DNA of 64,000 nt from Platerodrilus igneus. Lineage: Eukaryota; Arthropoda; Insecta; Coleoptera; Lycidae. The notes under the pieces were generated by a model, which was not told the DNA's origin, searched no databases, and worked only from the letters and a program-made list of their open reading frames with translations. A program made the translations under genes and the position numbers. Within the stretch, counting starts at the first letter, position 1. Every line of letters begins with the position of its first letter. This document shows positions 6,631-53,500 of this stretch, in pieces. Location: the NCBI GenBank assembly GCA_036346225.1, contig JARFIW010000453.1, positions 4,898,001 to 4,962,000 of the forward strand, given 5' to 3'.

Positions 6631-8375
6631 GTAACGTGCATTTTTGGTGGCCTAACATTTTTAGTCTACTTAATTCTTAAAATACATCGTTTTTGGATCG
6701 CGGTTTGTATAAAGTAAATACTTCCGCCTAGTTTTCAGATTGATATGCAAGTCGACTCGCCGGTATTAATTTTAAAAGATGGTTTAGTTGTAAATTGGAA
6801 TACTCGTAAAATTACTTTCCACTTGTCATTAATAAATAATCTCGCTGTAATTAATATGTGGATATACAGTCTAGGTAGGCGATCAGAAGTTGTACTAGTA
6901 GGATTAGATATAAACAAAAAAGGGTCGTGTTTTGTTCTTGCTTGGGAGATGTCAAAAATGAAGTGTAAGATACGGTTTTTCTGGTTGAATTAAGAGTGGT
7001 AGAGTTGGTGAAACTCGACGCACGTGTGTTCAAAGAACTTTCGACGTACGGCTTTAGTGCTTACGCGTGTCTACTAAACGTTTTTAGTCGTCTTATTATG
7101 AAAAAAAAGCTGTAGAACTAACTGTCGCGGAGTCGTAGTTGGTCTTTTGGTTCCGATATAGGAATTATGTTGAAGATACTGTTTCGTTCTGCTTTTAACT
7201 CGATGCACGCGGGTGTTAAGGACATGGTTACGGGCTCCCTTTAGTGATACATGTGCTTTACTTATTATGGCTTTTGTTGCTTGCTTTGTCTGGTGATATT
7301 TAAACTGTGACAGACTACCGGTATACAAAAGTAGTGGTTGAAGTTCCTCGCTGCTTTTTGTATGGTTATGCAACTAATATACCTAGTTCCTTCGCGTGAT
7401 AAGGTCCGCTGCTAACCCCAGTGAAATCAGTCAGTGTGATTAGGGTAAGTTGTGGTGAGTTCCATCAACACCCTGACAGTCTAGGGTGCAGTGCTTCGTT
7501 AGTGCCAGACATCGTGGATCCCACACTGCAATGGCAAGGAAGCGGTACTGAAGGACTTTGTGTAAGTTGCACTATTTCGTATTTGTTCTTACTGTAAATA
7601 TCTACCCGTTGTTTTTGCAATATTCCTTGTCGTTCTGATACCTTTTCCATAGACTTGCCCGCTATTTAATAACAAAAAAAAAAGAACAATCAACCATACT
7701 GAATGACTCAGAACAATTGTGCTTATCTACTTATTTATGTCTTTGCTAAAAATTTTACTAAATTACTTAGATTAATTATGTCTTACCTATTTATAAAGAA
7801 CAATCAACCATACTGAATGACTCAGAACAATTGTGCTTATCTACTTATTTATGTCTTTGCTAAAAATTTTACTAAATTACTTAGAGTAATTATGTCTTAC
7901 CTATTTATATTTTTTGTTACATTTTACCTGAATTATGTTTAATTGGTGTGTGATGAAACGTTTCTGCTACTCCCCAATATGGCCTCACTTTGTACTCAGA
8001 ATTTTTCTGTACTGCTATTACTGTTGTTAGATTATAGAGTTTATCTAAGCAGTTGCTCTTATTTATTCTATAAAGTACTGAACAATTTATACTTGATCCA
8101 TAGGCGATGCTTTTTCTCTGTTTCAGGTTTGCCGGACTAATTTGTTTTTCTTTCAGGTTTACTATTCTAATTTCTCTATGGCAGGTACTGGTACTAACTC
8201 CTGACAGCCGCGTCCCTTATAGATTGGTCTGCTTTCTACAACCCCCCCTACTCTCCGATTGAGCCCGGTCACTGTTTTTTTCTTAGATTTTTCTTTTGTT
8301 ACGCACGGCTACGAGCCAACGTGACATAACTTTGACGCACAACGTGGCGTCTACTAGAAATACATAACAAATTAT
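6631..8375. mobile_element. Insertion of unknown type within the left arm of A
   Basis: The arm sequence stops after TCTAGAATTT at 6630 and resumes at ACGCAGAATCCG at 8376. The right arm joins these two blocks directly, so about 1.75 kb was inserted or retained here. I found no clear terminal repeat or target duplication, and no recognisable protein. Longer open frames (6745-6993 plus; 7074-7373 and 7465-7650 minus) look random. A block TTCCTTCGCGTGATA near 7388 resembles the sequence just after the 5' LTR of the BEL element at 30537, hinting at an LTR-element fragment. Confidence 0.5.
7681..7908 (+). repeat. 114-bp tandem duplication
   Basis: Two near-identical units, 7681-7794 and 7795-7908, begin AAAGAACAATCAACCATACT. 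They differ at about one base, so the duplication is recent. It lies within the insertion in element A. Confidence 0.9.
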
Positions 8376-11286: not shown

Positions 11287-12911
11287 ATGGTGGAGTGGTT
11301 TGACATAGTGGTCTTGATCTTAACATTAGTTGTTAGTTCATTAACCTATTTTAAGTGGAAATTTTCATACTGGCGTAGGAAACGCATACCTTATATCCAG
11401 CCTCAGGTTCCATTTGGAACGAGCGAAAATCCATTTAGAAGAAAATATAACAACGCATTGCTGGTGCAAAATCAGTACCGTTACTTCAAATCGTTGGGAT
11501 TTGATTATGGAGGACTTTATTTATTGGTTAGACCAAGTCTGCTGTTGGTGGATAGTGAGCTTATTAAAAATGTAATGTCAAAAGATTTTCAGTATTTCAC
11601 TGATCGAGGATTGTACTATAACGAAAGAGACGACCCACTCAGTGCCCATTTATTTAACCTAGAAGGCCAAAAATGGAGAAATTTAAGGGCTAAGTTAACA
11701 CCAACATTTACATCAGGCAGAATCAGGACAATGTTTCCTACTTTGGTAGCATGTGGGGAGCCGCTATACGAACCTGCAAATAATTTCTGTAATAAAAGAG
11801 AGGCAATTGATATAAAAGATCTTTTAACACGTTTCACAACTGACGTAATAGGTTCTTGTGCATTTGGTCTAGAATGCAATAGCTTTAAAAAACCAGAAGG
11901 CGATTTCTACAAATACGCACGAATGATTTTTACAGCATCATCCAAAGTTGGAGCTCTTAAATTCCTTGTTGCTAATACAAATCCGACACTTGGTAGATTC
12001 CTAAAGATAACGATTTCCAGATCTCAGACTAGAGATTTTTTTTTAAACATCGTAAAGGAAACAGTAAATTATAGAAAACAGTATAATATAGTTCGCAACG
12101 ACTTCATGCAACTGCTTATTGATTTAATGAATAATGACTCCACCGGAGAAGGTTTAACAATTGAACAAATGGCTGCACAAGCATTTGTATTCTTTATAGC
12201 GGGGTTTGAAACATCTTCTACAACTATGACTTTTTGCCTGTATGAACTTGCAATTAATCAAGAAGTTCAGAAAAAGGTTCGAGACGAAATTCATGCTATA
12301 TTGTCCAAATTTGAAGGAAATATTACCTACGACGCCATTATGGAAATGAAATATTTAAACAGCGTAATTGATGGTAATAAATATAAACTTAACTTTGCCA
12401 ACACAATTAAATACACTTGTTTTTGCAGAAACATTAAGAAAATATCCCGCTCTTCCACTGTTATCGCGAGTTTGCGTGCAAAATTATAAAATTCCTGACA
12501 CTGATATTACCATAGAAAAAGACACCCGGCTCATTATTCCCGTGTACGCTTTGCATCACGATGAAGAATATTTTACAGATCCTGAAAAGTTCGATCCTGA
12601 TAGATTCAATGACAACAATAAAGTTAATATAAAACCATTCACCTACATGCCATTTGGAGAAGGTCCACGCATCTGCATTGGTAAACTTTGTTTTGCTACA
12701 GGCTTTTTGTTTCTACACGTATGTTTCAGGCCTCAGATTTGGGTTATTACAAACAAAGGTTGGTTTGGTTGTATTACTGAGAAACTTTCACTTTCTGCTC
12801 AATGCCAAAACCAAATTCCCTATAGAATTTAACCGATTAAGTATTTTACTAGGCGCCCAAGGTGGAGTTTGGTTGGATATTGAAAAGATTGGTGATAAAG
12901 ACGCCATATAA
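11287..12911 (+). CDS. Cytochrome P450, CYP6-type (clan 3), gene 1
   Basis: Three exons: 11287-12373, 12429-12680 and 12730-12911, joined across GT-AG introns of 55 and 49 bp, both in phase 1. They give 506 residues, normal for the family. Residues 5-20 form a hydrophobic ER membrane anchor. P450 landmarks are all present: WxxxR in helix C (W130, R134), the AGFETS oxygen-activation motif (about 305-310), ExxR (E363, R366, split by intron 1), PDRF (about 419-422) and the heme loop PFGEGPRICIG with ligand Cys445. Reading through the introns would break the protein, which supports the splicing. The PTFTSG and DRGLYYNE segments are typical of CYP6. The likely role is NADPH-P450-reductase-dependent oxidation of plant chemicals or xenobiotics; the substrate cannot be read from sequence. 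No disabling change was seen. Confidence 0.93.
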
Positions 12912-17448: not shown

Positions 17449-17454
17449 CAAGGG
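17449..17454. repeat. Target site duplication of element B, left
   Basis: CAAGGG directly precedes the element and is repeated exactly at 26722-26727. Confidence 0.88.
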
Positions 17455-17702
17455 AGTAGGGTAAAATCAAGAAATCCAGAACCACATTTCCCCCAGAATC
17501 CCACATTTCCCCACACATCTGGACCAAAAAGTTTTCTTCGACTAACCATTTTTCATCTTTCGAGATAAATATCTTAAATTTTTCATCTTTCGAGACAAAT
17601 GAGCATCCTCATTTCCTCCCACATCTGAACCAAAAAGTTTTCTTCGACTAACATTTTTTTATCTTTCATCTGAACCAAATAGTTTTCTTCGTCTAGCCAA
17701 TG

Positions 17703-18666
17703 CATCTTTCGAGATAAACCTACCTTGTTTGGTATCAATTAATATTAGATTTTCTCAGCTACCCGAATCTCTAGGAATTTTCAGATAGCATCACCCCCAG
17801 GAGCTACCCCATTTTAAGATTTCTTACCTGTAGCGACTTTTGACCGTTCTTATAAACTTTTTTAGTCATGCGATACATTAAATTAGCTTAGAATTTTATG
17901 CACATCCCGAATCTGCAAACAGATTTGAAATCGGACCACGCCCTGCAAAGTTATACCCCTTTAAAGTCCTGATCTTCTAAATTTTACTCTTTGCTTTATA
18001 AGCAAAACTAACAAATAGTTTTCTTCGTCTAGCCAATGCATCTTTCGAGATAAACCTATCTTGTTTGGTATCAATCAATATTAGAATTTTCTCAGCTACC
18101 CGAATCTTTAGGAATTTTTTAGATTGCGCCATCCCCCAGAGAGCTACCCCCATTTTAAGATTTCTTACCTGCTGCGATTTCTGACAATCCTTAAACATTT
18201 TTTTAGTCATGCGATACATATTGTTAGTCTAAAATTTTACGCACAACCCGAATCTGCAAACAGATTTGAAATCGGTCTACTCCTTACAAAGTTACCCCTT
18301 TAAAGCTCCCAAACCTCTACATTTTACTCTTTGCTTTATAAGCAAAACTAACAAATACTTTTCTTTGTCTAGCCAATGCATCTTTCGAGATAAACCCATC
18401 TTGTCTGGTATCAATTAATATTAGAATTTTCTCAGCTACCCGAATCTTTAGGAATTTTTCAGCTATCATCACCCCCAAGGGAGCTACCCCAATTTTAAGA
18501 TTTCTTACCTGTAGCGACTTTTGAGCGTTCTTATAAACTTTTTTAGTCATGCGATACATTAAATTAGCTTAGAATTTTATGCACATCCCGAATCTGCAAA
18601 CAGATTTGAAATCGGACTACTCCTTACAAAGTTACCCCTTTAAAGCTCCCAAACCTCTACATTTTG
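17703..18666 (-). repeat. Three ~340-bp subterminal repeats, left arm
   Basis: Units begin CATCTTTCGAGATAAACC at 17703, 18038 and 18379 (spacing 335 and 341 bp). The third is cut short. On the minus strand units 2 and 3 each hold an open frame of 80 codons from MYRMTKK to AYKAKSK (17977-18219 and 18317-18559). Unit 1 has a shorter version. Degenerate copies of the same block lie in element A (6270, 6445, 8525, 10300-10600). The unit is therefore a family trait and may be a replication or protein-binding region. Whether the open frame is coding is unclear. Confidence 0.8.
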
Positions 18667-18889
18667 CTCGTCTATGACATATGCTTTAACCAACTATTTC
18701 CCTAGAAATCTAAAACCGCAAGGATTTTAGAAACGAGTTTTTTATAAGCCATAAGTGCTTAGTATTTAAAATCATTTTTTCAAACAGTAATGTGCTTTTC
18801 TCAGAATGTTGCAAAAACCCATGACTTAAAATTTTTTATGGTTTTAACATAATTACATGCACAATGCTAAATTGTTGGAAAATACATAG

Positions 18890-19005
18890 ACAAGGACAAA
18901 CTAATCGCTTTACAATTATGTGACGTATAGTGAAAGTAGCATAGAGGACAAACTAATTGCTTTACAATTATGTGACGTAAAGTGAAAGTAGCCTTTCTTT
19001 TTTAT
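18890..19005 (+). repeat. 57-bp tandem duplication in the left arm
   Basis: GGACAAACTAATCGCTTTAC starts a unit repeated directly at about 18952 with few changes. It is mirrored in the right arm (about 25168-25285), so the duplication predates or was copied with the arm. Confidence 0.75.
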
Positions 19006-19213
19006 TAATTAGCGGGTATATGATTTGAGAAATACAATAGATATGCTCGATGCTAATAGGAAAGTACGCTAAATGCAAGTCAATTAACAACAATTTAATA
19101 GTGTTTACTGACCTACCTTAATTGTTTGTACAAGGAAACACAATAAAATATATTCAAATATAGTAACTACCTTATTTATTTATGCCCCATGTGTAGCTTA
19201 CTGTACTATTAGG

Positions 19214-19433
19214 ACCAGGGTATGCAGACTTTAACACCTCCATCTCGCACGCTTTACACGGATGTTAGTTGTTTCGTACAAGACCCTTTAACAACTGTTG
19301 GAGTTGAACGTTTACTGCTTAATGACATACCGTGCTGTTTTTCCTTGTGTTGCTGTAAGCTATTCTTGTAAAAGCGATACTGCAAGACCCAGAGTTTAAG
19401 TACTTTGCTGCCGACGGATGTATAAGCTTAACC
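19214..19433 (-). pseudogene. Zinc-finger relic, left arm of B
   Basis: The minus strand aligns with the zinc-finger segment of element A: the AEYLNYGSCGIAFTR equivalent appears as AKYLNSGSCSIAFTR, then frameshifts. A CKACEMEV block corresponds to the second finger. It lacks intact histidines and is dead. Confidence 0.5.
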
Positions 19434-19700
19434 GGGGACGATGTTACACCACGACATTAAATGGCAGGCTTGAATATTTTTTTTGGAAACAATCGAAGAT
19501 TGCCGAAGACACTCGAAGAGTGCACAAACGCGGTCACTAAACCACAATTAATAATCGCCTTTATAGGTTTAACATTTCTACCATTACCAATGACTTTAAT
19601 TTCTTATTGGAGAATCCTTATTCTCCCACGCACTGTTGCGTAGCTGGATGCCCACCCTTTTGGGGATATATGCTCGTTATAGGTTGTAGCACCCGCGGTT

Positions 19701-19836
19701 TTACTTAACTACACTTCGTGAGATCCCTTTAATCTTTTTAATCGTGTCCTTCTCGCGCACAATACAGTAGGACTTAGCCTTACTACCTACAAATTCTAAC
19801 ACCAAGTCACCGTTAAACTCGTCTTTAAATTTCCCC
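19701..19836 (-). pseudogene. Polymerase-B C-terminal tail, left arm of B
   Basis: This is the mirror copy of 24335-24472. The segment reads GKFKDEFNGDLVLEFVGSKA then KSYCIV and a lysine-rich end. An extra C in the run near 19833 shifts the frame relative to the right-arm copy. Confidence 0.5.
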
Positions 19837-20029
19837 ACAACTTTTTGTTAACATGCGGTAAATTGTGTTTATTATTTGCGGGTACACCACTTTAAACTTA
19901 AAAATAAAACAGGATAGTTTAATACGTCTATTAATAATTTATGGTAATGTTGACGATACAAATATGTAAAACAAACTTTATCAAGAAAATATAATGTTTT
20001 AATAGAATACATACATGTATTGATAACAT

Positions 20030-20823
20030 CTATAAACCGCTGTGGTAACCAGAGTCTGGCGAATCTGGGATATCCAAATCTCTAAACATTTGCGCAACCG
20101 ATTGCCTTGCAGTTGCATCTTTTAAGTACTGAATGGGAAACATTTAATAAGTTCCAACACTGTCAAGTAATTTAAATTGCTGCAATCATTTGACAGAGAA
20201 ATACTGGCACTGCTCTCTCCCTCTAATAACGTTTGAACCCCTTCTTCCTCCGTCGTATTTCCACATACTTTTTTTATATCACCAACAAATTTTTCGTAAA
20301 ATTCTGGAAAGTTTCTACACCTTAACTCGGTCATTTTATAACAGATCAATTCTCGCAAATTTAATAGCTTGATGCACTCGTACGCAGGTAGCACAATAAC
20401 ATTCCCATCTTTCGTAATCTCCATATTATATAAATTCTCTTTTTCAAAATTGTTCAACAACCATATACTTCTATTAAAGGCTGTGCTCAGCCGCAATTTG
20501 AAATCTTGATCCAATTGTATGTCAACAACATCGTTTCCAGTAGTGAGACCATTTAATCGAGTGTTTAGCACGTCACGAGAAAATACGTTGATTTGAAATT
20601 CCACTTGAAAAGTACACAATTTCTTCCAATCGAAGTAAGAGAATGTTATCGTAGAATCAGCACACATACCACTACAGCAAATAACTTGGATGGCAGGTTG
20701 AAGACCACCATATAAATCAAAACCAACTTCTAATATATGGTGGTGATAATTTGAAGGAAATTCGCCTAACCTATAGGTTGACTTACCAACTAGTTGGTTG
20801 ATATTTAATTGCGGTACTCGCAC
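20030..20823 (-). pseudogene. Unknown Polinton-core protein, frameshifted near its end
   Basis: A minus-strand frame of 233 residues runs from ATG at 20823 to a stop at 20122. It is acidic to neutral, has no membrane segment, and ends with a serine-rich stretch then LNYLTVLELIKCFPFST. I do not recognise a domain. Just before the stop another frame takes over and stays open across the inner edge of the left arm, reading YLKDATARQSVAQMFRDLDI then PDSPDSGYHSGL, and stops at 20030. The length and composition suggest one gene with a single frameshift near 20130. Its tail lies inside the inverted arm. It could be a capsid-associated or accessory protein, but that is a guess from context. Confidence 0.5.
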
Positions 20824-22073
20824 ATCACTTGTAACGTTAACACAAAAAATCCATCTTTAATTTATAATTTTAATCAAACTCGACGATACTTTGACGACTA
20901 ATGCACTGGAACATGGCTCTCGCCTTTTATGCCGATGGTCGAGCGTGCGCAGCTCCTTATTATATTAGTTGGCGTTATATGCAAGTCTTGACTGGAAAAG
21001 TGACGTCTATAATTGTTTTATAGTGGGTTTTACCTGTATGTATTTAACCACCAACGCCATTTTAGAATTATTAAACAAAATTACTCTTAGCAGTATTTTT
21101 AATATACCATCGTGTAAGATTTCAATTATTATTGTGTTTTCCTCAGGTTCTCAAATCCTCGGAATTTTTTCAAATCGAATGACCCTTACTGATTTGCAGA
21201 ATAACCTTTGCAATCACCGTATATAATTCATCTTTAATCTATTTCTAAAACGTATCGCTCTGTCTTTTGAGATAAACCCCTGGTGTAACCTATAAATTAG
21301 TATAGATTTTTCCTGGGGAATTGAAATTAATTATCACGTCTTTTAAAATTAGTTCCAACAAAGACCTGTATATATTGTATTAATATTCAAAACCTATGAG
21401 CAAAACACCTTTGCATTTTTATTTAGATTTAGCTCGATAATAGAGTTAAACTCCAAAAATATTTATTAGTGGCTAGAATTGTTAAAATTTTCAATTAGTG
21501 AATCCACATACAAATGATTAAACCAAAAGGTATAATACATATATTAATTCTATACGGTGACTTAGAAAGTGGTTCGATAATCTATTTTAAATGTAGTTCA
21601 ACATAAGACGTATATTCTAAATAAATTTAGTGAAATGTATGATCATTAGCCTTGCATTGTTTATCGATGACGTCTGACTATTAATTTAATAAAAGCACTT
21701 TCCACAATTCTAGTTAATATACGGGAATACACATTCTATAATTTGATTTAAATTGGGTTAATGTAAGGACAAATTATACTTATACTTTCTCCTCAACGTA
21801 TTTAGGAAGTTTATATCAAATCTTCCGCACATTATACGCACTATGGAAGTTGACATGCAAAATCAGATATGCAAATTCGAGAACTTGCGTTTTATTTAAA
21901 TAAGAATTCTTTAGTGAAGATGTTGACATTTGATGGGAATTATATGATATTTACCAAAGGAACTTTAGAGCACTTTTAGGGTATCTCAGATCGTTCTCAA
22001 CCATGCTAATACTTTAAAAGAACTAACGGAAAAGGGTACTCCTAATATAGATCTGTTTCTGTTAGATGTCGCA
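20824..22073. other. AT-rich part of the element B core, no clear gene
   Basis: An 85-codon plus-strand frame (20969-21226) is hydrophobic and unlike any family I know. I regard it as chance in AT-rich DNA. Deletions of original Polinton genes probably account for this gap. Confidence 0.35.
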
Positions 22074-22280
22074 ATGGGAAGATATAATAGGAATGATGTC
22101 CTACAGAATCTCGCACATGATGTAATTAAAAGCAAATACAGTAATAGTGATATTGGGATCATATTATACGAATTTATAAGAACCTACCCAAGATTGTTTG
22201 AAAACAGTATTTGTAAACAAGTTGAGTATATGGAAGAATACAACAGGTTTCCATTCCACGCATTTACGAGCGATGTTTAA
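22074..22280 (+). CDS. Hypothetical 68-residue frame in the core of B
   Basis: ATG at 22074 gives 68 residues beginning MGRYNRNDVLQNLAHDVIKS and ending in FHAFTSDV. The frame is open upstream to a stop at 21966-21968, giving about 103 codons without an ATG. Charged helical composition makes it more protein-like than its surroundings. No domain was recognised. It lies on the strand opposite to the other core genes, which argues against it. Confidence 0.25.
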   Translation: MGRYNRNDVLQNLAHDVIKSKYSNSDIGIILYEFIRTYPRLFENSICKQVEYMEEYNRFPFHAFTSDV

Positions 22281-22663
22281 ATTTTAAGCCGAAGACTGAA
22301 AATTTTGTAACACTATTAATTACACTTTTGTTTTCTTATACGTTTCTAAATTGTTGTATTTCAACTACAGATATTAATAGATGTCAATAAAATTATGTTA
22401 TAGTTTTAAATAAAACAATTCTGATTAATAATTTTGTAAAACGTTTATAACACCCTTTTAAAAAAATAATACACATCTTTGTTATAATTCTTTTCATAAT
22501 TACTTAGATACCCATTTCAGTTACGTGGACATTTGAAAAATTAAACAATACCAATGTATGCTTAATATTTTAAAACATAAACAAGCTAATATATACAAAA
22601 ATAATTTCTAAATTCACATAATTCATTTCTTATGATAACAGTTGTGGTGGTTAAATTTTTATT

Positions 22664-22906
22664 CTAAAACTTACAATTTAGTATATATTCCATTTGAATA
22701 TCTGCCAACAGTTTTATAAACCCCATCTCCTCGATTATTTCCATAAAATCATCCAGATCCTCGGGCATTGATAACACTGCAGTACAGTGCTGTATTGCTT
22801 CCTCGTATGACTGACACATAAGACATTTTTCTCCTTCTATCGAAAAGCGTTGCCCACATTCTGCTTTTTTACTCGTAGAGCATTGCGAAATCTTCGAATA
22901 ACCTCT
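22664..22906 (-). pseudogene. Cysteine-containing small-protein relic
   Basis: A minus-strand frame reads AECGQRFSIEGEKCLMCQSY and EEAIQHCTAVLSMPEDLDDF, then a helical FMEIIEEMGF tail, and stops at 22664. The C...C-x2-C arrangement could bind zinc. No ATG begins this frame; an adjacent frame (about 22950-22880) reads KTLERLFEDFAMLYE and then stops, so a frameshift probably separates the N-terminal part. I do not recognise the family. Confidence 0.4.
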
Positions 22907-23251
22907 CCAAAGTCTTTATACATATTTGTTATATTGTCTCTTTGAACCGTACAATCAACAAATAATAACTTCTACGCGAACAGTCCTTTTATATGAGCTA
23001 CTCCTATTCGGATATGTACCGATTGCACCCGATTTGTGTGCACGCACGAAGCAACCGGTATGGAATGTATTCTATGAACAAAATCATTACATTTCTTAAG
23101 AAAAATGCTAAGGACTTTAAAAATAATTATAACTCTTGTTAGACCTCTAGTCTCTAGATAAACGTTATTATTTTAGGTTGTGTCACTGTTTTCTAAATCA
23201 ATTTCCTACATACTTTTTCCTAAACTATGCGTATCAATTGACGGTTATACC

Positions 23252-23597
23252 TTACTCCATAACCGACTTGTATATATTTTCGTCTTCGTCTCTAGCTAAC
23301 ACATCCGCATAGTAAAGATGGAACGGTTCTTCTGGAACGAGTTGCTTAATTTTCTTTATAGGTACGTCCATGTTTTCGACTTTAACCTTTGTTGTAGGTA
23401 TGGGATTTTTCGGTGATCGATTGCAACTGGGAAGCGGTTATTTGCAGTGGATCGATCAATTGTTTGTGCACCTCTTTGAATTTTTGCTGAGATGTAGCAT
23501 CTCCCTTTTTGTACGCTACAAACTTTTTTCGTGCAGCATCCTGCATAAGATGAAGACTGCGTTTATTCGCAATAAAATTCTTAACGTCCGTCATCAT
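23252..23597 (-). pseudogene. Small unknown protein downstream of the ATPase, frameshifted
   Basis: ATG at 23597 opens 71 residues (MMTDVKNFIANKRSLH..., with a lysine-rich helix and KQLIDPLQITA). Before its stop at 23382 the next frame opens and continues through MDVPIKKIKQLVPEEPFHLY to a stop at 23252. The two parts are probably one gene of about 115 residues. It starts 37 bp after the ATPase stop, as in an operon-like viral gene pair. From memory, proteins with a similar KK..K......P-L/I-..PL pattern follow ATPases in insect Polinton-like elements; this is not certain. Confidence 0.4.
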
Positions 23598-23634
23598 GAA
23601 ACTTTGGATGGGAACTAACTTTTTTTGAATAATA

Positions 23635-24055
23635 TCAAATATTTATATACTCGTCGAAATTCTTCCTATATCGACCATTATCCAAATCAAAATCTTTAAC
23701 AACAGTTATAAAATTATGTTTTGAGTCACCCCAACACTGTAAACACATTTCTTTAAATTTCGGATATATCATGTCACCACTTATATAATCCGAAAAGATA
23801 TGTCCGAGATTGGTTTCATCCTGTTTCCATATTGCGATTACATTGGCGTTATCTCTGAGTCTATGTTTTAAGGCACTAGCGTAAGTTTGACATAGATAGA
23901 ACGAATCTATTGCTTTATGTCGACCGAACGAGAAAAACTGAGTGATTTTACTTTGCTCGTTTGCAGGTATATCATCGAAAACCATAACTGAATCTTCTTT
24001 GGTATCTCCGGGTTCGATCAAATCATCGTAATTTTCAAACTCATGGTAACCAATT
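23635..24055 (-). pseudogene. FtsK/A32-type DNA-packaging ATPase, N-terminally truncated
   Basis: The minus-strand frame encodes about 139 residues of core sequence plus four from the arm (apparent ATG at 24066). It includes a Walker B-like SVMVFDDIP, then ITQFFSFGRHKAIDSFYLCQ and TYA. That motif run is typical of the packaging ATPases of Polintons, virophages and related DNA viruses. It ends in YRKNFDEYINI at 23635. The Walker A P-loop expected upstream is missing, because the frame meets the inner edge of the right arm at 24056. In life the protein would pump DNA into a capsid; here it cannot bind ATP normally. The residue run and position in a 6-bp-duplication element make the family assignment strong. 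Confidence 0.8.
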
Positions 24056-24334
24056 TGCAACTGCAAGGCAATCGGTTGCGCAAATGTTTAGAGATTTGGA
24101 TATCCCAGATTCGCCAGACTCTGGTTACCACAGCGGTTTATAGATGTTATCAATACATGTATGTATTCTATTAAAACATTATATTTTCTTGATAAAGTTT
24201 GTTTTTACATATTTGTATCGTCAACATTACCATAAATTATTAATAGACGTATTAAACTATCCTGTTTTTATTTTTAAGTTTAAAGTGGTGTACCCGCAAA
24301 TAATAAACACAATTTACCGCATGTTAACAAAAGT

Positions 24335-24472
24335 TGTGGGAAATTTAAAGACGAGTTTAACGGTGACTTGGTGTTAGAATTTGTAGGTAGTAAGGCTAAG
24401 TCCTACTGTATTGTGCGCGAGAAGGACACGATTAAAAAGATTAAAGGGATCTCACGAAGTGTAGTTAAGTAA
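24335..24472 (+). pseudogene. Polymerase-B C-terminal tail, right arm of B
   Basis: The plus frame reads CGKFKDEFNGDLVLEFVGSK, AKSYCIVREKDTIKKIKG and ends SRSVVK with TAA at 24470. The G-K-x-K-D-E...G...EFVG..AKSY pattern followed by KxxKG is what I recall from the extreme C-terminus of protein-primed polymerase-B proteins of Polintons and some viruses. Only this tail is present; the catalytic palm motifs are absent. Confidence 0.6.
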
Positions 24473-24529
24473 AACCGCGGGTGCTACAACCTATAACGAG
24501 CATATATCCCCAAAAGGGTGGGCATCCAG

Positions 24530-24712
24530 CTACGCAACAGTGCGTGGGAGAATAAGGATTCTCCAATAAGAAATTAAAGTCATTGGTAATGGTAGAAATG
24601 TTAAACCTATAAAGGCGATTATTAATTGTGGTTTAGTGACAGCGTTTGTGCACTCTTCGAGTGTCTTCGGCAATCTTCGATTGTTTCCAAAAAAAATATT
24701 CAAGCCTGCCAT
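24530..24712 (-). other. 60-codon frame identical in both arms
   Basis: A frame starting MAGLNIFFGNNRRLPKTLEE and ending ILILPRTVA is identical in translation at 19461-19643 (plus strand). Identity is expected because the arms are near-identical, so it says nothing about function. It has a hydrophobic C-terminal half and no known domain. It is probably chance. Confidence 0.2.
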
Positions 24713-24740
24713 TTAATGTCGTGGTGTAACATCGTCCCCG

Positions 24741-24960
24741 GTTAAGCTTATACATCCGTCGGCAGCAAAGTACTTAAACTCTGGGTCTTGCAGTATCGCT
24801 TTTACAAGAATAGCTTACAGCAACACAAGGAAAAACAGCACGGTATGTCATTAAGCAGTAAACGTTCAACTCAACAGTTGTTAAAGGGTCTTGTACGAAA
24901 CAACTAACATCCGTGTAAAGCGTGCGAGATGGAGGTGTTAAAGTCTGCATACCCTGGTCC
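24741..24960 (+). pseudogene. Zinc-finger relic, right arm of B
   Basis: This mirrors 19214-19433 and aligns with element A 9345-9560. A frameshift breaks the first finger. The second keeps only CKAC. Confidence 0.5.
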
Positions 24961-25508
24961 TAATAGTACAGTAAGCTACACATGGGGCATAAATAAATAA
25001 GGTAGTTACTATATTTGAATATATTTTATTGTGTTTCCTTGTACAAACAATTAAGGTAGGTCAGTAAACACTATTAAATTGTTGTTAATTGACTTGCATT
25101 TAGCGTACTTTCCTATTAGCATCGAGCATATCTATTGTATTTCTCAAATCATATACCCGCTAATTAATAAAAAAGAAAGGCTACTTTCACTTTACGTCAC
25201 ATAATTGTAAAGCAATTAGTTTGTCCTCTATGCTACTTTCACTATACGTCACATAATTGTAAAGCGATTAGTTTGTCCTTGTCTATGTATTTTCCAACAA
25301 TTTAGCATTGTGCATGTAATTATGTTAAAACCAGAAAAAATTTTAAGTCATGGGTTTTTGCAACATTCTGAGAAAAGCACATTACTGTTTGAAAAAATGA
25401 TTTTAAATACTAAGCACTTATGGCTTATAAAGAACTCGTTTCTAAAATCCTTGCGGTTTTAGATTTCTAGGGAAATAGTTGGTTAAAGCATATGTCATAG
25501 ACGAGCAA

Positions 25509-26472
25509 AATGTAGAGGTTTGGGAGCTTTAAAGGGGTAACTTTGTAAGGAGTAGTCCGATTTTAAATCTGTTTGCAGATTCGGGATGTGCATAAAATTC
25601 TAAGCTAATTTAATGTATCGCATGACTAAAAAAGTTTATAAGAACGCTCAAAAGTCGCTACAGGTAAGAAATCTTAAAATTGGGGTAGCTCCCTTGGGGG
25701 TGATGATAGCTGAAAAATTCCTAAAGATTCGGGTAGCTGAGAAAATTCTAATATTAATTGATACCAAACAAGATGGGTTTATCTCGAAAGATGCATTGGC
25801 TAGACAAAGAAAAGTATTTGTTAGTTTTGCTTATAAAGCAAAGAGTAAAATGTAGAGGTTTGGGAGCTTTAAAGGGTAACTTTGTAAGGAGTAGACCGAT
25901 TTCAAATCTGTTTGCAGATTCGGGTTGTGCGTAAAATTTTAGACTAACAAGATGTATCGCATGACTAAAAAAATGTTTAAGGATTGTCAGAAATCGCAGC
26001 AGGTAAAAAATCTTAAAATGGGGGTAGCTCTCTGGGGGATGGCGCAATCTAAAAAATTCCTAAAGATTCGGGTAGCTGAGAAAATTCTAATATTGATTGA
26101 TACCAAACAAGATAGGTTTATCTCGAAAGATGCATTGGCTAGACGAAGAAAACTATTTGTTAGTTTTGCTTATAAAGCAAAGAGTAAAATTTAGAAGATC
26201 AGGACTTTAAAGGGGTATAACTTTGCAGGGCGTGGTCCGATTTCAAATCTGTTTGCAGATTCGGGATGTGCATAAAATTCTAAGCTAATTTAATGTATCG
26301 CATGACTAAAAAAGTTTATAAGAACGGTCAAAAGTCGCTACAGGTAAGAAATCTTAAAATGGGGGTAGCTCCCTGGGGGGTGATGCTATCTGAAAAATTC
26401 CTAGAGATTCGGGTAGCTGAGAAAAATCTAATATTAATTGATACCAAACAAGGTAGGTTTATCTCGAAAGAT
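25509..26472 (+). repeat. Three ~340-bp subterminal repeats, right arm
   Basis: These mirror 17703-18666. Open frames at 25613-25855, 25952-26194 and 26293-26517 begin MYRMTKK. Copies within an arm differ from each other more than the matching copies of the two arms do. Confidence 0.8.
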
Positions 26473-26721
26473 GCATTGGCTAGACGAAGAAAACTATTTG
26501 GTTCAGATGAAAGATAAAAAATGGTTAGTCGAAGAAAACTTTTTGGTTCAGATGTGGGAGGAAATGAGGATGCTCATTTGTCTCGAAAGATGAAAAATTT
26601 AAGATATTTATCTCGAAAGATGAAAAATGGTTAGTCGAAGAAAGCTTTTTGGTCCAGATGTGTGGGGAAATGTGGGATTCTGGGGGAAATGTGGTTCTGG
26701 ATTTCTTGATTTTACCCTACT

Positions 26722-26727
26722 CAAGGG
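26722..26727. repeat. Target site duplication of element B, right
   Basis: CAAGGG is an exact match to 17449-17454. Confidence 0.88.
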
Positions 26728-31156: not shown

Positions 31157-33480
31157 TTGTCGTTTGTTTCTTCATACAAAATGTCTGACACAAATACTTC
31201 TGAAACTTTATTAAAGCTCTACGCTGCTAGGATTCATGAAATCTTCGAACTTTCTGAAAAGGCACAATACAATGATTCAGTACACAAGTTATTCAAATTG
31301 AAGTGTCGTATAGTGGAATCTATCTACAAGGATTTTACTGAAAAATATGTTACTGTATTTATAAACACAGAACCAGAATTGCAACCAGCTTTAGAGAATT
31401 TGTGTCGAAACGTAGATGACGAATATTATTCTATTCTTTTGATAGAGCAAGAAATATTTTCTGCTGAAGTGAAAACTCCGTCTGCGAATCACACAAGTCG
31501 ACAAGACAATAATTTTACACCTAGAGTAAAATTACCAAAAATTACTCTACCACGTTTTGATAATGACCCAAAAAACTTTAAGACTTTCAAGGATATGTTT
31601 GATGTTTCGATAGATAAACAACCGCATTTAACGGACATCGAAAAGCATTCCTACCTTCTTTCAAGCTTGTCGGGTGAATTATTGACATTGTTGCGGTCTA
31701 TTCCTCTTTGTCATGAAAATTACAAACTAGCATATGACACTTTATGTTCTAGATATAATAATAAACGTCTTTTGGCTAATCACCATTGGGGTTTAATAAA
31801 AAACTACCCGCCTATGCATGCGGAAAACGTAAAACAACTTCGAAATTTAATTGACTGTTTTGCAGAAAACTTATCGATTTTGGGATCATTACAATTTGAT
31901 GTTGAAAGTTGGGATTTCGTTCTTGTAGATCTTTTATTATGTAAACTCGATGAGGAAACTCGTAAACGATTCGAATTGCATTTCAATTCTACTGATGTGC
32001 CTACATTCAATTGCGTCAAAGACTTTTTGTCAAAACAATGTGTAGCCTTAGAGAATCTTGTCTCAAGCAAACAACCGAAAGTGCTTAAAGGTACTATTAA
32101 TAAACAAGGTCTCACTCGTTCGAATTCTGACTTGAAGCCTAGGACATTCTTAGCTGAGACTAACACTTCTAAGAACAATTCGTTCTCCTGCATCCTTTGC
32201 AAGGGAAATCATGTATTGTATTCGTGCGAGCAATTTCTTAAATTGTCTCCAAACAAGCGTCACGAGCAAGCCAAACATCTTCGGTTATGTTTGAACTGTC
32301 TTCGACCAAATCATAACATGTCGTCTTGTCCGTCAAAGGTTTCGTGCAGAACTTGCAATAAAAATCATCATACATTGTTACATTTTGTGCCGTCGATTGC
32401 TACGCCACCACCTTCTTCAACTCCAACTCGTGAAGAAAATTTGCAAACCAGTTCGTCTAATAATGCTACTTGTACTACAACAATTGGGTCTGAGGCGACA
32501 ACTTGTCTAGCTCTGCTACCCACGGTTTGTTTGGAAATTCTCGACAAGAGAAATCAACCTCAAATTATTCGTGCTCTAGTAGACACTGGGAGTCAAATTT
32601 CATTTATTACGGAGTCTTGTCGTAAGTCTATTGGTATATCGTCTCGTCCTTCTTCGATTCCTATTTCTGGCTTGGGCCAGACTTCACACCAAACGTTAGG
32701 TGTAATATCTGGAACAATTCGTCCCATTCAGGAATATGATTCAGTCCCGACGGACAACAATTTGAAAATAAACTTAATGGTCTTGCCGTCTATTTGCGGT
32801 AATCTTCCAAACAAGTATATTCAATCGTATTGGTCTCATTTGGAAAACATAAAACTCGCAGATGAAAACTGGAGACATCCCTCTCCAGTACAAATGTTAT
32901 TGGGCTCTGATGTTGCCAGTCGTATTTTGCTCGATGAGAAAATTGATGGCAAAGAAATTTCGCCTGTTGCTGTCAACACCATATTTGGTTACATGATATT
33001 TGGTACTGTCGATCCCATCTCAACCAATGTTATTCATTCGTTCTTTGTATCTATCGATCCTTGTATGGATATTGATCTTAAACATTTTTGGGAGCTTGAC
33101 GACATTCCATCGAAGAGTTTGTCGTCCCCGGAAGATAACCTTGCTCAACAATCTTTTGATAACTCGTTGCATCGGTTACCCAATGGTAGGTTCGGCGTGA
33201 GCCTCCCATTTAGAGAAAATGTTCGTGAGTTTCCGGACTCGAAATCTATTGCCATTAAACGTCTATTGTCACTAGAGCGTCGTCTCGAAACTAATCCAGA
33301 CTTGCGAAATTTTTATGTAGATTTCATGCGTGACTACGAAGCATCTGGTCACATGTCGCTTTTATCAACGCCTCCAGCTGACAATAATGCGTATTTTATT
33401 CCACACCATGCAGTGTTCAAACTAGAAAATAATAAACCTAAATTGAGAATTGTTTTGACGCTTCGGCTCGAGCTTCGAAT
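31157..33480 (+). pseudogene. BEL gag, zinc knuckles and aspartic protease
   Basis: A frame of 778 residues starts at 31157; a second ATG at 31181 (MSDTNTSETLL) may be the true start. Residues about 1-300 are a DUF1759-type gag with the KLPKITLPRFDNDPKNFKTF segment. Residues about 345-410 hold cysteine knuckles (CILCKGNH...C, CLNCLRPNHNMSSC, CRTCNKNHHTLLH). Residues about 455-640 are a retropepsin-like protease with ALVDTGSQISFIT. The N-terminal part of RT follows (HHAVFKLENNKPKLRIV). One missing base in the T run near 33452 shifts the frame and ends the protein at 33493. The RT continues in the next frame, so gag-pol was probably a single frame originally. Confidence 0.88.
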
Positions 33481-34075
33481 GGTATTTCATTGAATGATAC
33501 CTTACTCACTGGACCTAAGCTCCAGAATCATATTGTAAAAATACTTTTGGCATTTCATATTCCCAAGTTCGTTTTTGTCTGTGACATAAAACAAATGTAC
33601 AGGCAAATATTGATATCAGAAACGGATCGTTCTTATCAATTGATACAATGGCGATGGAATCCTTCAGAACCAATTTCAACCTATCAGTTGAACACAATTA
33701 CATATGGAGTTTCATCCGCTCCTTTTCTCGCCATTCGCACTATCTTACAACTAGCTGAACTAGGAGAAAATAGCTACCCATTGGCTGCTCATGCTTTGAG
33801 AAACAATTTGTATGTTGATGATGTATTGACTGGGTCGTCCACTCTCCAGGCAGCTCATGAACTAAAACGTCAACTCATCGACCTACTACGTGCTGGCTGC
33901 TTCGAACTACGCAAATGGGCTAGCAACAGTCCACTACTGTTAGAAGATATTCCTACTGAGTATCAACAAGTAAAACCAAGATTAGTCGCAAATGATCTTA
34001 ATTTTACCATAAAAGTGCTTGGTCTTCAGTGGCACTCGATACCTGATAATTTTCATTTAAAATGCAGTCTTTAGA
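33457..34075 (+). pseudogene. BEL reverse transcriptase
   Basis: The frame (ATG at 33490) gives LNDTLLTGPKLQ-type sequence, FVCDIKQMYRQI with the first palm aspartate, ITYGVSSAPFLAIR, and LYVDDVLTG, the catalytic YxDD box. It stops at 34072; RT-connection sequence (LSKRILLSTVARIYDPLGF) continues in another frame, showing a second frameshift near 34060. The palm motifs are intact. The break and the frameshift at 33452 prevent a full polyprotein. Confidence 0.88.
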
Positions 34076-34898
34076 AAATCGTCTTTCCAAGCGGATTTTA
34101 CTTTCGACAGTTGCTAGGATTTACGATCCTCTAGGATTTATTACACCAGTTACCTTTTTACTCAAACAACTCATTCAACAATTTTGGGTGCTGGGGTTGG
34201 ATTAAGACGATCCTCCTCCTGAATCTATTGTCTTATTTTGGAAAAAATTTGTTGCTGAATTTTCATATATTGATTCAATTCAAATTCCTCGTTATATCCC
34301 TATTGATGAAGCCTGTAGTATACAACTACATGGTTTTTGTGACGCGTCCGAGAAAGGATATTCGGCTATTGCATATTTTCGTTTAGTATTTCCGTCAGGA
34401 AAAATATCTGTTCACTTTGTTATGGCTAGATCAAAGGTCGCCCCTTTGAAATGTCTTTCTATACCCAAGCTAGAACTATGTGCTACCGTACTTTTGTCTA
34501 AATTAGTTCATTTTGTTAAAACTACTTATTCAAATGTAACCTTTGAAAAAATCTGTTGTTACACTGATTCTTTTGTCGCGTTGACTTGGATTAAGTCACC
34601 TACCTATCGTTTAAAAATGTTTGTAGCTAACCGTGTTAGTTACATCCAAGAACGTATTTCTCCCGAACAGTGGAGTTACATTAGTTCTTCAAACAACCCA
34701 TCTGATTGTGCTACCAGAGGTTTATTTCCTTCGGTATTGCCCGCGCATCCGCTATGGTGGGCAGGTCCTGAATTTTTGTCGTCTGAAGAAAATTGGCCTT
34801 TGCCAAAATTGTTCGTCCCTTCTCTGGAAGCATCTTCTGAGGAGAAACGCCTTACTTTGATTGTTACTGTAGAATCAACTTGGCTGGAAGACTTATAA
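34076..34898 (+). pseudogene. BEL RT-connection and RNase H region
   Basis: After a stop at about 34204 the frame gives LHGFCDASEKGYSAIAYF, SVHFVMARSKVAPLK, IPKLELCATVLLSKL, CYTDSFVALTWI and NPSDCATRGLFP, the Pao-family RNase H region with its acidic residues. It stops at 34896-34898 (TAA). The coding sense of the following DNA shows the stop is a mutation rather than the natural end. Confidence 0.85.
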
Positions 34899-34959
34899 AA
34901 CAAATTTTCGTCGTTACACAAAATTCAACGTATAGTCGCATATTGTCTGAGAATCTTTA

Positions 34960-36300
34960 ATGTTAGAAAAGCTACCATCAATTCGCTATTTTTATCGTCG
35001 GTGGAGCTTCACACTGCTCTTATGGTTATTGTCAAGGTGGTCCAATTTAGTTCACTTAGTTGAAATCGAAGTCGTTCGTCAAGGTGAGCCTTTGCCTAAA
35101 TATCTGCAACGTCTAGGCTTATTTCTTGATTCGAATGACATTTTAAGAGTAGGCGGGAGACTGATTCATTCCAATCTTCCAGATTCCGCAAAACATCCAG
35201 CGGTATTACCCAATAAACACCGTATAACAGATTTGTTGATTAAACAAGTGCACACACTTAATTTACATTCGGGAGTAAACACAACGATGTACTTGCTTCA
35301 AGAACGATTTTGGATCATCTCATCTCTTCGCGCAGTTCGTAGAATACTGTCTAAATGTTATCATTGTTATCGTCTTCGCCCTATTCCTGTCAGTCCAGTT
35401 ATGGGTGAATTGCCTTCATTTCGTGTTTCTCAAGCCAAGGCTTTTAGTTCCGTCGGCATCGATTTTGCCGGCCCTTTTACGATTAACATGCATCGTGCAA
35501 GAGGCACCAAGACTTGCAAGACATATCTTTGTGTGATTGTTTGTTTCGCCACTAAAGCTCTTCATTTGGAAGTCGTATCAGACTTGTCGACTGATGCCTT
35601 TATCGCTTGCCTTCGTCGTTTTATTGCTCGTCGTGGTCGGTGTCAACACATTTTCAGCGACTGCGGCACAAATTTCGTCGGCGCTAGTCGCTAACTTTTA
35701 AAGGATTTCCGACACTGTGCAGAATCGTTAGCCATTTCGTGGCATTTTAACCCCCGTCTACCCCTCACTTCGGAGGTATTTGGGAAAGCGCCGTTAAATC
35801 GGTGAAACCAAGTGCTCACGTACGAGGAGTTTCATAGTTTAATCACTCAGATTGAAGCATTGTTGAATTCAAGACCCTTGTGCAGCATAAGTTCGGATCC
35901 CAATGATCTTTCGTCACTGACACCAGGTTACTTTCTAACTTTAGAGCCCTTGACAGCACCTCCGGACCCAGACTTGTCTCATTTGAAAATCTCTAGACTC
36001 TCTCGTTGGCAGTTGATTCAAGCTATGCATCAAAGTTTTTGGGTTCGATGGCACAATGAGTATTTACACCAATTGTATCAACGTGGTCGGTGGTACAAGT
36101 CCAAGAGACTCGACGGCGTTGACATTGGTACTTTAGTGCTCATCAAAGAAGAGGGCGTTCCTCCTTTAAATTGGAAACTCGCCAGAATTGTAGAGCTTCA
36201 TCCTGGAAGCGATGGAGTACCTCGTGTAGCCACCGTAAAAACTTCACGAGGGAATTTGAAAAGACCAATGGTCAAATTATGCCCATTGCCGTCTCAATAA
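34960..36300 (+). pseudogene. BEL integrase, interrupted
   Basis: Frames at 34960-35694 and 35812-36300 give an HHCC-like N-terminal domain (VHTLNLHSGVNTT...CYHCYRLR). The core has VGIDFAGPF (first D), IFSDCGTNFVGA (second D) and IEALLNSRPL (catalytic E). The C-terminal DUF5641-like domain includes WVRWHNEYLHQLYQRGRW. The first frame joins the preceding coding sequence through a frameshift near 35050. A stop at 35692 and frame change between 35694 and 35812 break the core, so it is inactive. The final stop lies at 36298-36300. Confidence 0.88.
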
Positions 36301-43565: not shown

Positions 43566-45172
43566 ATGATTGGTTATTTTTATATATGCACAGTGATTGT
43601 TACAGTATTTGTTGTTTTGTTAACTTATTTTAAATGGAAATTCTTACATTGGCGTAATAAGGAAATTCCTTACATAGAACCAAGATTTCCTTTTGGAACA
43701 AACGAAAATCCATTCAAACGACAAGTGAATAGAGCAATTTGGTTCCAAAGGCAATACCATCACTTCAAATCATTAGGATGCAGATATGGTGGATTATATT
43801 TATTTCTTCGACCAGGATTTCTAGTAGTTGATACAAGATTTATAAGAAATGTGATGTCGAAAGACTTCCGGTACTTTACCGACAGGGGTCTCTACCACAA
43901 CGAAACAGATGACCCACTCAGCGCTAACTTATTTAACCTGGAAGGTGAGAAATGGAAAAATTTGCGCGCTAAATTAACGCCAACGTTCACAAGTGGTAAA
44001 ATTAAGAACATGTTTGCAACGTTAGTAGCTAGTGGAAATCCATTGTATGCAGCTGTAATAGACTACTGCCACAAAAAGGAACCAATTGATGCAAAAGACC
44101 TTTCAGCACGGTTTACTACCGACGTAATTGGATCATGTGCGTTTGGTTTAGAGTGCAACAGTTTTACAGAACCGGAAAGTGATTTCCGCAAGTATGGAAA
44201 AATGTTCTTTTCGGCATTATCCAAATTTCAACTTATAAAATTTATATTTGCATCTTCAAATCCTACACTGAGTAAACGATTAGGGATAACGATTTCAGAT
44301 CCCTTGCCTAAAAATTTCTTCTTGAATATTGTTAAAGAGACCTTACGGTACAGAAAACAGAACAACATAGCACGTAATGACTTTATGCAGCTGCTTATGA
44401 ACCTCATGGATGATGAGAGTGAACCAGGATTAACAGTTGAGCAAGTGGCAGCTCAAGCCTTCGTTTTCTTTATAGCTGGGTTTGAAACATCGTCCACAAC
44501 AATGACTTTTTGTCTTTGTGAACTTGCGGTTAATCAACAGATTCAAGAAAGGGTTCGAGATGAAATCAACTCGACATTATCCAAGTATAAGGGAAATATT
44601 ACTTATGAGGCCATGATGGAGATGAAATATTTAAACAATGTAATTGAAGGTACGGAATTTAAAACTGATTATTTATTAAACACCTACCGATATTTATCTT
44701 TACAGAAACGCTGAGAAAATATCCTCCATTTTCCTTTTTGTTTAGAGTATGCGTTAAAAATTACAAAATACCCGGTACAAACACTAATATAGAAAAAGGT
44801 ACCCGTGTCATTATTCCAGTGTATGGATTACACCACGACCCTGAATATTTTCCTGATCCAGAAAATTTTAATCCTGATAGGTTCAACGAAGAAAATAGAT
44901 CTAAAATAGTACCATTCACCTACATACCTTTTGGCGAAGGTCCACGTATTTGCATAGGTAAGATTTGTATACTATATCATCTGATTATTTTTATCAATAT
45001 TTTAGCCTCTAGGTTTGGACTATTGCAGACGAAAGTAGGCTTGGTTATATTACTAAGGAACTTTATCTTTCGGCTTAATGCTAAAACTAAATTTCCTATC
45101 GAATATGATCGATCGAGTTTTACTTTAACGGCCAAAACAGGTATCTGGTTGGATATAGAAAAAGTTATATAA
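43566..45172 (+). CDS. Cytochrome P450, CYP6-type (clan 3), gene 2
   Basis: Exons 43566-44649, 44706-44957 and 45006-45172 are joined across GT-AG introns of 56 and 48 bp at the same sites and phase (1) as in the gene at 11287. The product has 500 residues. An N-terminal anchor (about 5-20) is followed by WxxxR (W130, R134), AGFETS (about 304-309), ExxR (E362, R365), PDRF and the heme loop PFGEGPRICIA with Cys444. Splicing gives alanine after CI where the paralogue has glycine; this Gly-to-Ala change occurs in other P450 families, so the enzyme is probably still active. The PTFTSG and DRGLYHNE segments place it in CYP6. It is a duplicate of gene 1, very similar by eye along its length. The likely role is oxidative detoxification at the ER; the substrate is unknown. 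Confidence 0.93.
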
Positions 45173-52796: not shown

Positions 52797-53098
52797 ATTG
52801 ACAAAAATGCTAAAGGTAATTGAAAATTAGGTTTATGTATAGTTGTGTACACAATTTAGATTTGTAAATTTTTCAATTGTCGTCATTGGTTTCGGTGGCG
52901 TAATTGAAAAACGCATGGTCTTAGAAAAACTAAGATACAGGTTTAAGTCCTGTCCAAGATCTTACATTTTTTTTCTTTCAATTACTAGCTCGATTTGAAA
53001 TGATCATTTGGGCTTTGCATAAAAGTCTAAGTTATTATTTCATTTTATTCACTGTAATGCGATAGTATTTATCAACTTACCTTATGTAATTAACTATC
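52797..53098 (+). repeat. tRNA-like repeat unit 1
   Basis: This ~300-bp unit is repeated at 53201-53500. It contains a tRNA-like core at about 52888-52962: box A-like TGGCGTAATTG, a stem-loop CTTAG-AAAAA-CTAAG, and box B-like GGTTTAAGTCC. The flanks are AT-rich and shared by both units. It is a tRNA-derived SINE or tRNA pseudogene rather than a working tRNA. Confidence 0.6.
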
Positions 53099-53200: not shown

Positions 53201-53500
53201 ATTGACAAAAATGCCAAACGTAATTGAAAGTTATGTTTATGTATAGTTGTGTACACGATTTAAATTCGTAAATTTCCAAATTGTCGTCATCGGCCTCGGT
53301 GGCATTATTGGTAAACGCATGGTTCCGGCAAAACCAGAATACAGGTTCAAGTCCTGTCCAAGACCTTATATTTTCTATCTTTCAATTACTAGCTCGATTA
53401 GAAATGATCATTTGGGCTTTGCATAAAAGTCCAAGTTATTATTTCATTTTATTAATTGTAATACGGTAGTATTTATCAACTTACCTTGTGTAATAACTAC
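53201..53500 (+). repeat. tRNA-like repeat unit 2
   Basis: This second unit lies 404 bp after the first. The core at about 53292-53366 has box B GGTTCAAGTCC and an anticodon-like stem TGGTT/AACCA with a 7-nt loop CCGGCAA. The base at position 33 is C rather than the near-universal T. The acceptor stem (GGCCTCG with CAAGACC) pairs only partly. Confidence 0.6.

What the first reader, a model, noticed from the sequence alone, without database searches (positions are those of the whole stretch)
17449..26727. Polinton-like element with 6-bp target duplication and ~2.66-kb inverted arms
Seen directly: CAAGGG on both sides, AGTAGGG ends, near-identical inverted arms 17455-20117 and 24056-26721, and a core with a packaging-ATPase fragment. 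Known: Polintons/Mavericks make 6-bp duplications and carry an FtsK/A32-type ATPase and polymerase B. Arms this long that carry gene pieces and 340-bp repeats seem unusual. The near identity of the arms points to recent activity or ongoing homogenisation.
Basis: partly seen in the sequence, partly recalled or inferred. Interest (0 to 1): 0.8.

Follow-up and report, generated by a model that had tools for sequence, protein, structure and literature searches.

The report
Palindromic Polinton-derived mobile element
A virus-like jumping element with relatives in the same genome that are built as large mirror-image DNAs around a shared central hairpin sequence, most of the mapped copies having lost a different stretch beside that centre, which hints at an unusual copying cycle.

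Summary
Observation confirmed: 17449-26727 is an insertion with a CAAGGG duplication and 2.66-kb inverted arms, 99.4% identical. It is Polinton/Maverick-derived: 6-bp duplications in 7 of 8 copies checked, A32 ATPase fragment, PolB C-terminus remnant, and terminal repeats related to one lying beside an uninterrupted 1036-codon PolB frame elsewhere in the genome.

The arms are not ordinary terminal repeats. All 15 relatives first compared have inverted arms, 1.1-7 kb long where seen; in C280 and C722 they are nearly the whole element. A full arm (about 7.4 kb in C1029) ends at an exact central palindrome ('axis'), of which about 120 bp is 93% conserved in a subfamily with mostly different arms. 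In 17 of 25 axis-bearing loci mapped, one arm reaches the axis region and the other is missing from within 134 bp of it out to a point that differs in all 17. The window copy is a member that lost the axis.

Best explanation: a non-autonomous snap-back Polinton, moved in trans, whose palindrome is made (perhaps remade) by turning round at the axis hairpin; a deletion starting at the axis accompanies or follows insertion. Structure is shown; the copying cycle is inferred, and gene conversion in an old palindrome remains a serious rival.

The parts
17449..17454 (+). left copy of the 6-bp target duplication CAAGGG
26722..26727 (+). right copy of the 6-bp target duplication CAAGGG
17455..24055 (+). 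more complete arm: terminal repeat to inside the ATPase gene; about 6.6 kb of a ca 7.4-kb arm
   Evidence: matches one arm of C280, C581, C935 and (in two pieces) C1029 at about 98%; arm length from C1029 coordinates
24056..26721 (-). second arm, reduced to its outer 2.66 kb (inverse of 17455-20117, 99.4% identical)
24055..24056 (.). junction of the central deletion: ATPase coding sequence joined to arm position 20117 in reverse; the axis is lost here
   Evidence: no axis match in the window
17676..18669 (+). 2.9 tandem copies of a 340-bp unit in the terminal repeat
25503..26500 (-). the same tandem repeat in the second arm
19701..19847 (-). remnant of the C-terminus of a Polinton PolB (48 aa)
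   Evidence: 77-83% identical to PolB ORFs at C918, C1397 and C90, E 8.7e-24 to 3.0e-22; no Pfam match by itself
24326..24472 (+). inverted copy of the PolB remnant in the second arm (start approximate)
   Evidence: translation, arm alignment
20122..20856 (-). ORF of 244 aa of unknown function, present in other copies
   Evidence: no Pfam match, PHROGs only above 0.05, no homologue at E 0.001
23635..24055 (-). C-terminal part of the A32-type packaging ATPase; the N-terminal half, with a psq-type HTH in relatives, is deleted here

Best explanation
The finding is a non-autonomous derivative of a Polinton/Maverick whose basic plan is a giant palindrome: two inverted copies of an arm of about 7.4 kb (terminal repeat, degraded PolB, unknown ORF, ATPase or other genes) meeting at a conserved axis palindrome of about 120-140 bp. 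It moves with the help of PolB-bearing relatives that have related ends (inferred). I infer that during strand-displacement, protein-primed copying, the displaced or nascent strand of one complete arm folds back at the axis hairpin and is copied back to its own end, which makes (perhaps remakes) a perfect palindrome with two usable ends. The palindrome inserts with a 6-bp duplication. The exposed axis is then cut, one arm is resected for 0.2 to 6 kb and the ends are joined, so copies carry their own deletions. In the window copy the deletion crossed the axis and left 2.66 kb of the second arm. Shown: family, palindromic plan, conserved axis, deletions that start near the axis and differ between copies, target duplications. 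Shown for some elements only: arms closest to each other. Inferred: fold-back priming, trans mobilisation, timing of the deletion.
For: Inverted arms in 15 of 15 elements compared (14 at 97.7-99.4%, one at 72%; some were picked because hits were paired). Neighbouring hits within 16 kb are all -/+: 16 pairs for the ATPase, 28 for the PolB N-terminus remnant, none +/- or same-strand (from the 150 rows each). 6-bp duplications in 7 of 8 copies; in the eighth one end was not located. Axis palindrome in C722 at 93% over about 120 bp although its arms mostly differ. Of 25 axis-bearing loci mapped, 17 resume at 17 different points, the missing part starting within 134 bp of the axis; counted on the 20 loci picked by ATPase alone this is 11 of 20. 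C855 arms are 98.5% alike but at most 92.5% like any other arm in region 18700-20000, support 1.000. A terminal repeat 84.8% identical to window 17467-17951 lies 0.4 kb from a 1036-codon PolB frame at C918. No pair among the first 55 of 115 PolB-domain rows.
Against: No perfect, undeleted palindrome was found. No integrase or capsid gene was located in the family, and the centre of a PolB-bearing copy was not read. The exact terminal motif was not found in the stretches next to the C918 and C90 PolB. Only best-scoring copies were examined. Arm likeness could come from gene conversion in an old palindrome. The arms of C385 and C453b, and the window's left arm, match other copies better than their own partner, and C394 and C1431 arms tie across elements; C325 arms are best matches by identity but not sisters in the tree. 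Some copies have arms only about 70% alike (C1298, L031, part of C976), which simple self-copying does not give. Eight of the 25 mapped loci are more complex.
Confidence: 0.55

Rival explanations
1. One ancient palindrome arose once and has spread since; arms are kept alike by gene conversion between them, and each insertion later lost one side of the unstable centre. No renewed fold-back copying is needed.
For: Same axis in the sampled copies and in the C722 subfamily; arms are mutual best matches in only 5 of 10 elements; conversion in chromosomal palindromes and one-sided loss at a palindrome centre are known (recall).
Against: 17 of 17 clean junctions differ although many copies are 99-100% alike, so deleted copies were not templates of one another in their deleted form; an undeleted source must exist outside the sample or be remade.
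Confidence: 0.33
2. An ordinary Polinton whose terminal inverted repeats grew to 2.66 kb by recombination.
For: TIR, 6-bp duplication, A32 ATPase.
Against: Relatives C280 and C722 have 7-kb arms covering almost the whole element and a central axis; the window's inner arm end is a junction inside two genes.
Confidence: 0.05
3. Assembly or sequencing artefact (fold-back reads, unsplit adapters).
For: Such reads give inverted duplications (recall); raw reads were not available.
Against: Host flanks differ on the two sides in 7 of 7 elements tested, with 6-bp duplications in the same 7; arms carry differences; the axis recurs at many loci.
Confidence: 0.03
4. Another class of long-TIR transposon (Foldback, Galileo) that captured Polinton pieces.
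For: Long internally repetitive TIRs resemble those described for Galileo (abstract start).
Against: 6-bp duplications, terminal repeat related to one beside a PolB frame.
Confidence: 0.02

Closest known systems
Polinton/Maverick (PMC4028283 and PMC6431247, passages seen)
   Same: 6-bp duplications, terminal inverted repeats (these two defining features recalled), A32/FtsK-type ATPase, PolB (remnant here, uninterrupted frame beside a related terminal repeat)
   Different: 15-20 kb coding transposons in PMC4028283; this family is non-autonomous and palindromic with a conserved axis
Snapback subgenomes of adeno-associated virus (PMC8235507, passages seen)
   Same: Self-complementary molecules holding one end of a genome, symmetric or asymmetric, helper dependent
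   Different: AAV is a hairpin-primed parvovirus; those are packaged molecules, these are integrated, multiplied copies with target duplications
Invertron plasmids such as pAL2-1 (PMC1864894, passages seen)
   Same: Linear elements with terminal inverted repeats; long inverted repeats at integration tentatively ascribed to racquet or panhandle replication intermediates
   Different: There the inverted repeats are of flanking mitochondrial DNA, here they are the element itself
Galileo and Foldback elements (PMC3573991, abstract start in search listing only)
   Same: Long TIRs with internal repeats, structural variation among copies
   Different: P-type transposase; no PolB or A32 ATPase and another duplication length (recall)

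Membership tests
Polinton/Maverick, non-autonomous derivative | 6-bp target-site duplication | tested here: met
   7 of 8 copies checked, window included; in C325 one end was not located
Polinton/Maverick, non-autonomous derivative | terminal inverted repeats shared with a PolB-bearing copy of the genome | tested here: inconclusive
   related repeat beside PolB frames: L058 (C918) 84.8% over window 17467-17951, L059 (C90) 94% over 104 bp; the outermost bases and the other end of those elements were not matched or read
Polinton/Maverick, non-autonomous derivative | coding remnants of Polinton genes (PolB, A32 ATPase) | tested here: met
   the PolB pieces have no Pfam match by themselves
Polinton/Maverick, autonomous | intact protein-primed PolB in the element | tested here: not met
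   only a 48-aa C-terminal remnant at 19701-19847 was found
Polinton/Maverick, autonomous | RVE-type integrase in the element | tested here: not met
   no integrase match in the five core ORFs scanned; no whole-genome search for the integrase was run
Polinton/Maverick, autonomous | double-jelly-roll capsid and penton genes | tested here: inconclusive
   no family match for the five core ORFs; the 244-aa ORF model had pLDDT 32.8
Snapback / fold-back defective genome | two inverted copies of one genome end around a short centre | tested here: met
   15 of 15 elements compared have inverted arms; pair orientation
Snapback / fold-back defective genome | origin by fold-back priming during replication | not testable with these tools
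   needs replicating molecules
Foldback / Galileo | own transposase family and other target duplication length (recall) | tested here: not met
   6-bp duplication; no transposase match in the five core ORFs

The most novel reading that the evidence does not exclude
The axis is a working part, not a scar: the free form is a linear molecule with one protein-primed end (terminal repeat) and one hairpin end (axis), and integration uses its head-to-head dimer. The protein encoded next to the axis in a sister subfamily, whose predicted fold weakly resembles plasmid rolling-circle initiators, may act at that hairpin. This would be a mixed adenovirus-like and parvovirus-like replication cycle in an animal mobile element.
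Probability: 0.2. Interest if true: 0.92.

Novelty: new variant of a known kind. Interest (0 to 1): 0.75.

Why it matters
Polinton replication has not been observed directly as far as I know (recall). A family of near-identical palindromes with a conserved centre and distinct central deletions records what happens to such molecules and makes fold-back copying testable in natural DNA. It also gives a natural set of repair outcomes at a palindrome centre in what looks like an animal genome. As an untested thought, transcripts across such elements would be long hairpin RNAs matching Polinton genes.

Tried and rejected
Rejected: ordinary long TIRs; read artefact (flanks differ in 7 of 7); my early idea that each copy snapped back at a random place (the common axis fits better); reading the frequent 168-aa ATPase frame as a junction (in the one copy I looked at it looks like a frameshift).

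Never answered by the busy genome search: the arm interior as DNA, the core as DNA, the L010 PolB piece, the axis pattern, the empty-site query. So there is no genome-wide axis count and no empty-site test. The script timed out and was replaced; only waited.

Full report
Observation. The insertion 17449-26727 is real: a CAAGGG duplication on both sides, ends AGTAGGGTAAAATC, arms 17455-20117 and 24056-26721 with 15 substitutions and 9 gap openings in 2670 columns, and 340-bp repeats in both arms. The surrounding genome (G000, 2.71 Gb, 1723 contigs) is unnamed. The window also holds cytochrome P450 coding stretches and BEL/Pao retrotransposon pieces.

Family. The outer 1.2 kb gave 47 matches from 40 scored of 8853 first-look candidates. 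The ATPase fragment gave 150 matches from 150 scored of 11051. These candidate numbers are not copy numbers. Of eight copies whose ends I checked, seven have identical 6-bp duplications; in the eighth (C325) one end was not located. There are two end types, AGTAGGGTAAAATC and AGTAGAGTATAATT. The ATPase is complete in relative L016 (306 aa), with a psq-type helix-turn-helix and a Pox_A32 domain above the curated cut-offs, and 864 proteins of 1332 candidates match it at E 0.001. Window 19701-19847 is 77-83% identical to the C-terminus of PolB ORFs at C918, C1397 and C90, though Pfam does not recognise the piece alone. At C918 a repeat 84.8% identical to window 17467-17951 lies about 0.4 kb from an uninterrupted 1036-codon PolB frame; at C90 a 104-bp piece is 94% identical; the exact terminal motif was not found in either stretch. 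So this is Polinton-derived and non-autonomous; that these PolB-bearing copies mobilise it is inferred.

The palindromic plan. Comparing 15 elements with themselves, all 15 have inverted arms: 14 at 97.7-99.4%, C1298 at 72%. For several only part of the element was fetched, and C394, C385 and C1431 were fetched because their ATPase hits were paired. In C280 and C722 the arms are about 7.0 kb around centres of 0.6-0.9 kb; in C581, C935 and C855 they are 1.1-1.9 kb. Of the 12 centre stretches (three chosen as listed pairs), six showed clear self-inversion at 98.9% or more (L021, L022, L025, L026, L029, L032), and four more (L023, L024, L027 at 76%, L028) showed second-arm sequence when mapped. 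L031 has a diverged arm, L030 only a weak signal. Among the 150 listed ATPase hits all 16 close pairs are -/+; among the 150 listed hits of the PolB N-terminus remnant all 28 are -/+. Among the first 55 of 115 PolB-domain rows there is no pair; the other 60 rows, mostly shorter pieces, were left out of that count. Partners outside the lists are missed.

The axis. Many centres share an exact palindrome, with a GC-rich tip and AT-rich shoulders. Searched as DNA it gave 86 matches from 40 scored of 725 candidates, most sites on both strands. I fetched 12 of these sites. That they have the axis is by selection; what is informative is that 5 of 12 (L041, L043, L045, L046, L049) show flanking arms inverted at 98% or more within 1.5 kb, L048 at 80%, and in L038, L039, L042, L044 and L047 one side is arm sequence from elsewhere in outward orientation; L040 is unclear. 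About 120 bp of the axis is conserved at 93% in C722, whose arms otherwise align to the window's only in patches besides the terminal repeat. On the complete side the neighbouring gene is either the ATPase or a long ORF with 17 homologues among 1213 candidates, one named from the psyllid Cacopsylla melanoneura.

Junctions. One search found a half axis in 37 of 49 loci given. I mapped 25 of these 37 (the ATPase-type ones; L010, L037, L038, L040-L047 and L049 were left out) on the fullest arm of C1029 in two pieces, at most 3.5 kb each side of the axis. In 17 (L001, L002, L003, L005, L014, L015, L018, L019, L020, L021, L022, L025, L028, L029, L032, L036, L039) the second arm is missing from 0-134 bp beside the axis and resumes at 17 different distances, from 223 to 6319 bp. 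L001, L018 and L022 have lost some bases of the axis tip; L019 resumes inside the minisatellite, so its point is uncertain; C1029's own arm lacks part of the axis shoulder, so distances are rough by about 100 bp. The other eight (L008, L013, L017, L023, L030, L031, L035, L048) are more complex: diverged arms, minisatellite on both sides, or an insert. Requiring the axis favours junctions near it; on the 20 loci picked by ATPase (L013-L032) the clean near-axis junctions are 11 of 20, and four (L016, L024, L026, L027) gave no half-axis match, though L016 has a degenerate one. The window copy lost the axis, the start of the ATPase on one side and the second arm down to position 20117.

Arms within elements. 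Ten elements had both arms in one of two regions. In five (C280, C1397, C1029, C325, C855) the two arms are each other's best match; C394 and C1431 are identical within and between the two; in C385 and C453b both arms match other copies better, and WIN_L matches C325 (99.61%) better than WIN_R (99.46%). C855 is the clearest: 98.5% within, at most 92.5% to others in region 18700-20000, support 1.000, although its one arm in region 21900-23500 is 97.1% to C1029. In the trees C1397, C280 and C1029 pair with support 0.976, 0.966 (region 21900-23500) and 0.959 (region 18700-20000); C325 arms are not sisters.

Interpretation. The pattern fits self-complementary molecules made by fold-back copying at a hairpin, as in snapback subgenomes of AAV (PMC8235507, passages), and resembles the racquet or panhandle intermediates discussed for invertron plasmids (PMC1864894, passages). 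Whether the palindrome is remade each cycle, or comes from a surviving perfect source with conversion between arms, is open. Distinct junctions among nearly identical copies show only that deleted copies were not templates in their deleted form.

Limits.

Noticed in passing
window 31157-36300 (+): BEL/Pao-type retrotransposon pieces: DUF1759, aspartyl protease, RT, Peptidase_A17, integrase, DUF5641 (some below curated cut-offs).
   Followed up: no
window 11287-12489 and 43566-45172 (+): Cytochrome P450 coding stretches with long uninterrupted frames.
   Followed up: no
window 52889-52961 and 53293-53365 (+): Two tRNA-like genes (Ser AGA, Ala GGC) about 400 bp apart; not tested whether tRNAs or tRNA-derived repeats.
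   Followed up: no
window 7681-7909: Two tandem copies of a 114-bp unit, 99% matches.
   Followed up: no
L047:2-988, L049:377-1438, L045:1881-2807: Unnamed protein family encoded next to the axis in a sister subfamily, 17 homologues in the protein search; predicted fold weakly like rolling-circle initiators and TBP, at background level.
   Followed up: partly
L016, L031, L008: Elements whose two arms are only about 70% alike inside, so arms from two lineages seem combined.
   Followed up: partly
genome G000: PF03175 PolB: 115 matches from 87 scored of 6269 candidates, several with open frames over 1000 aa; the eight fetched differ widely.
   Followed up: partly
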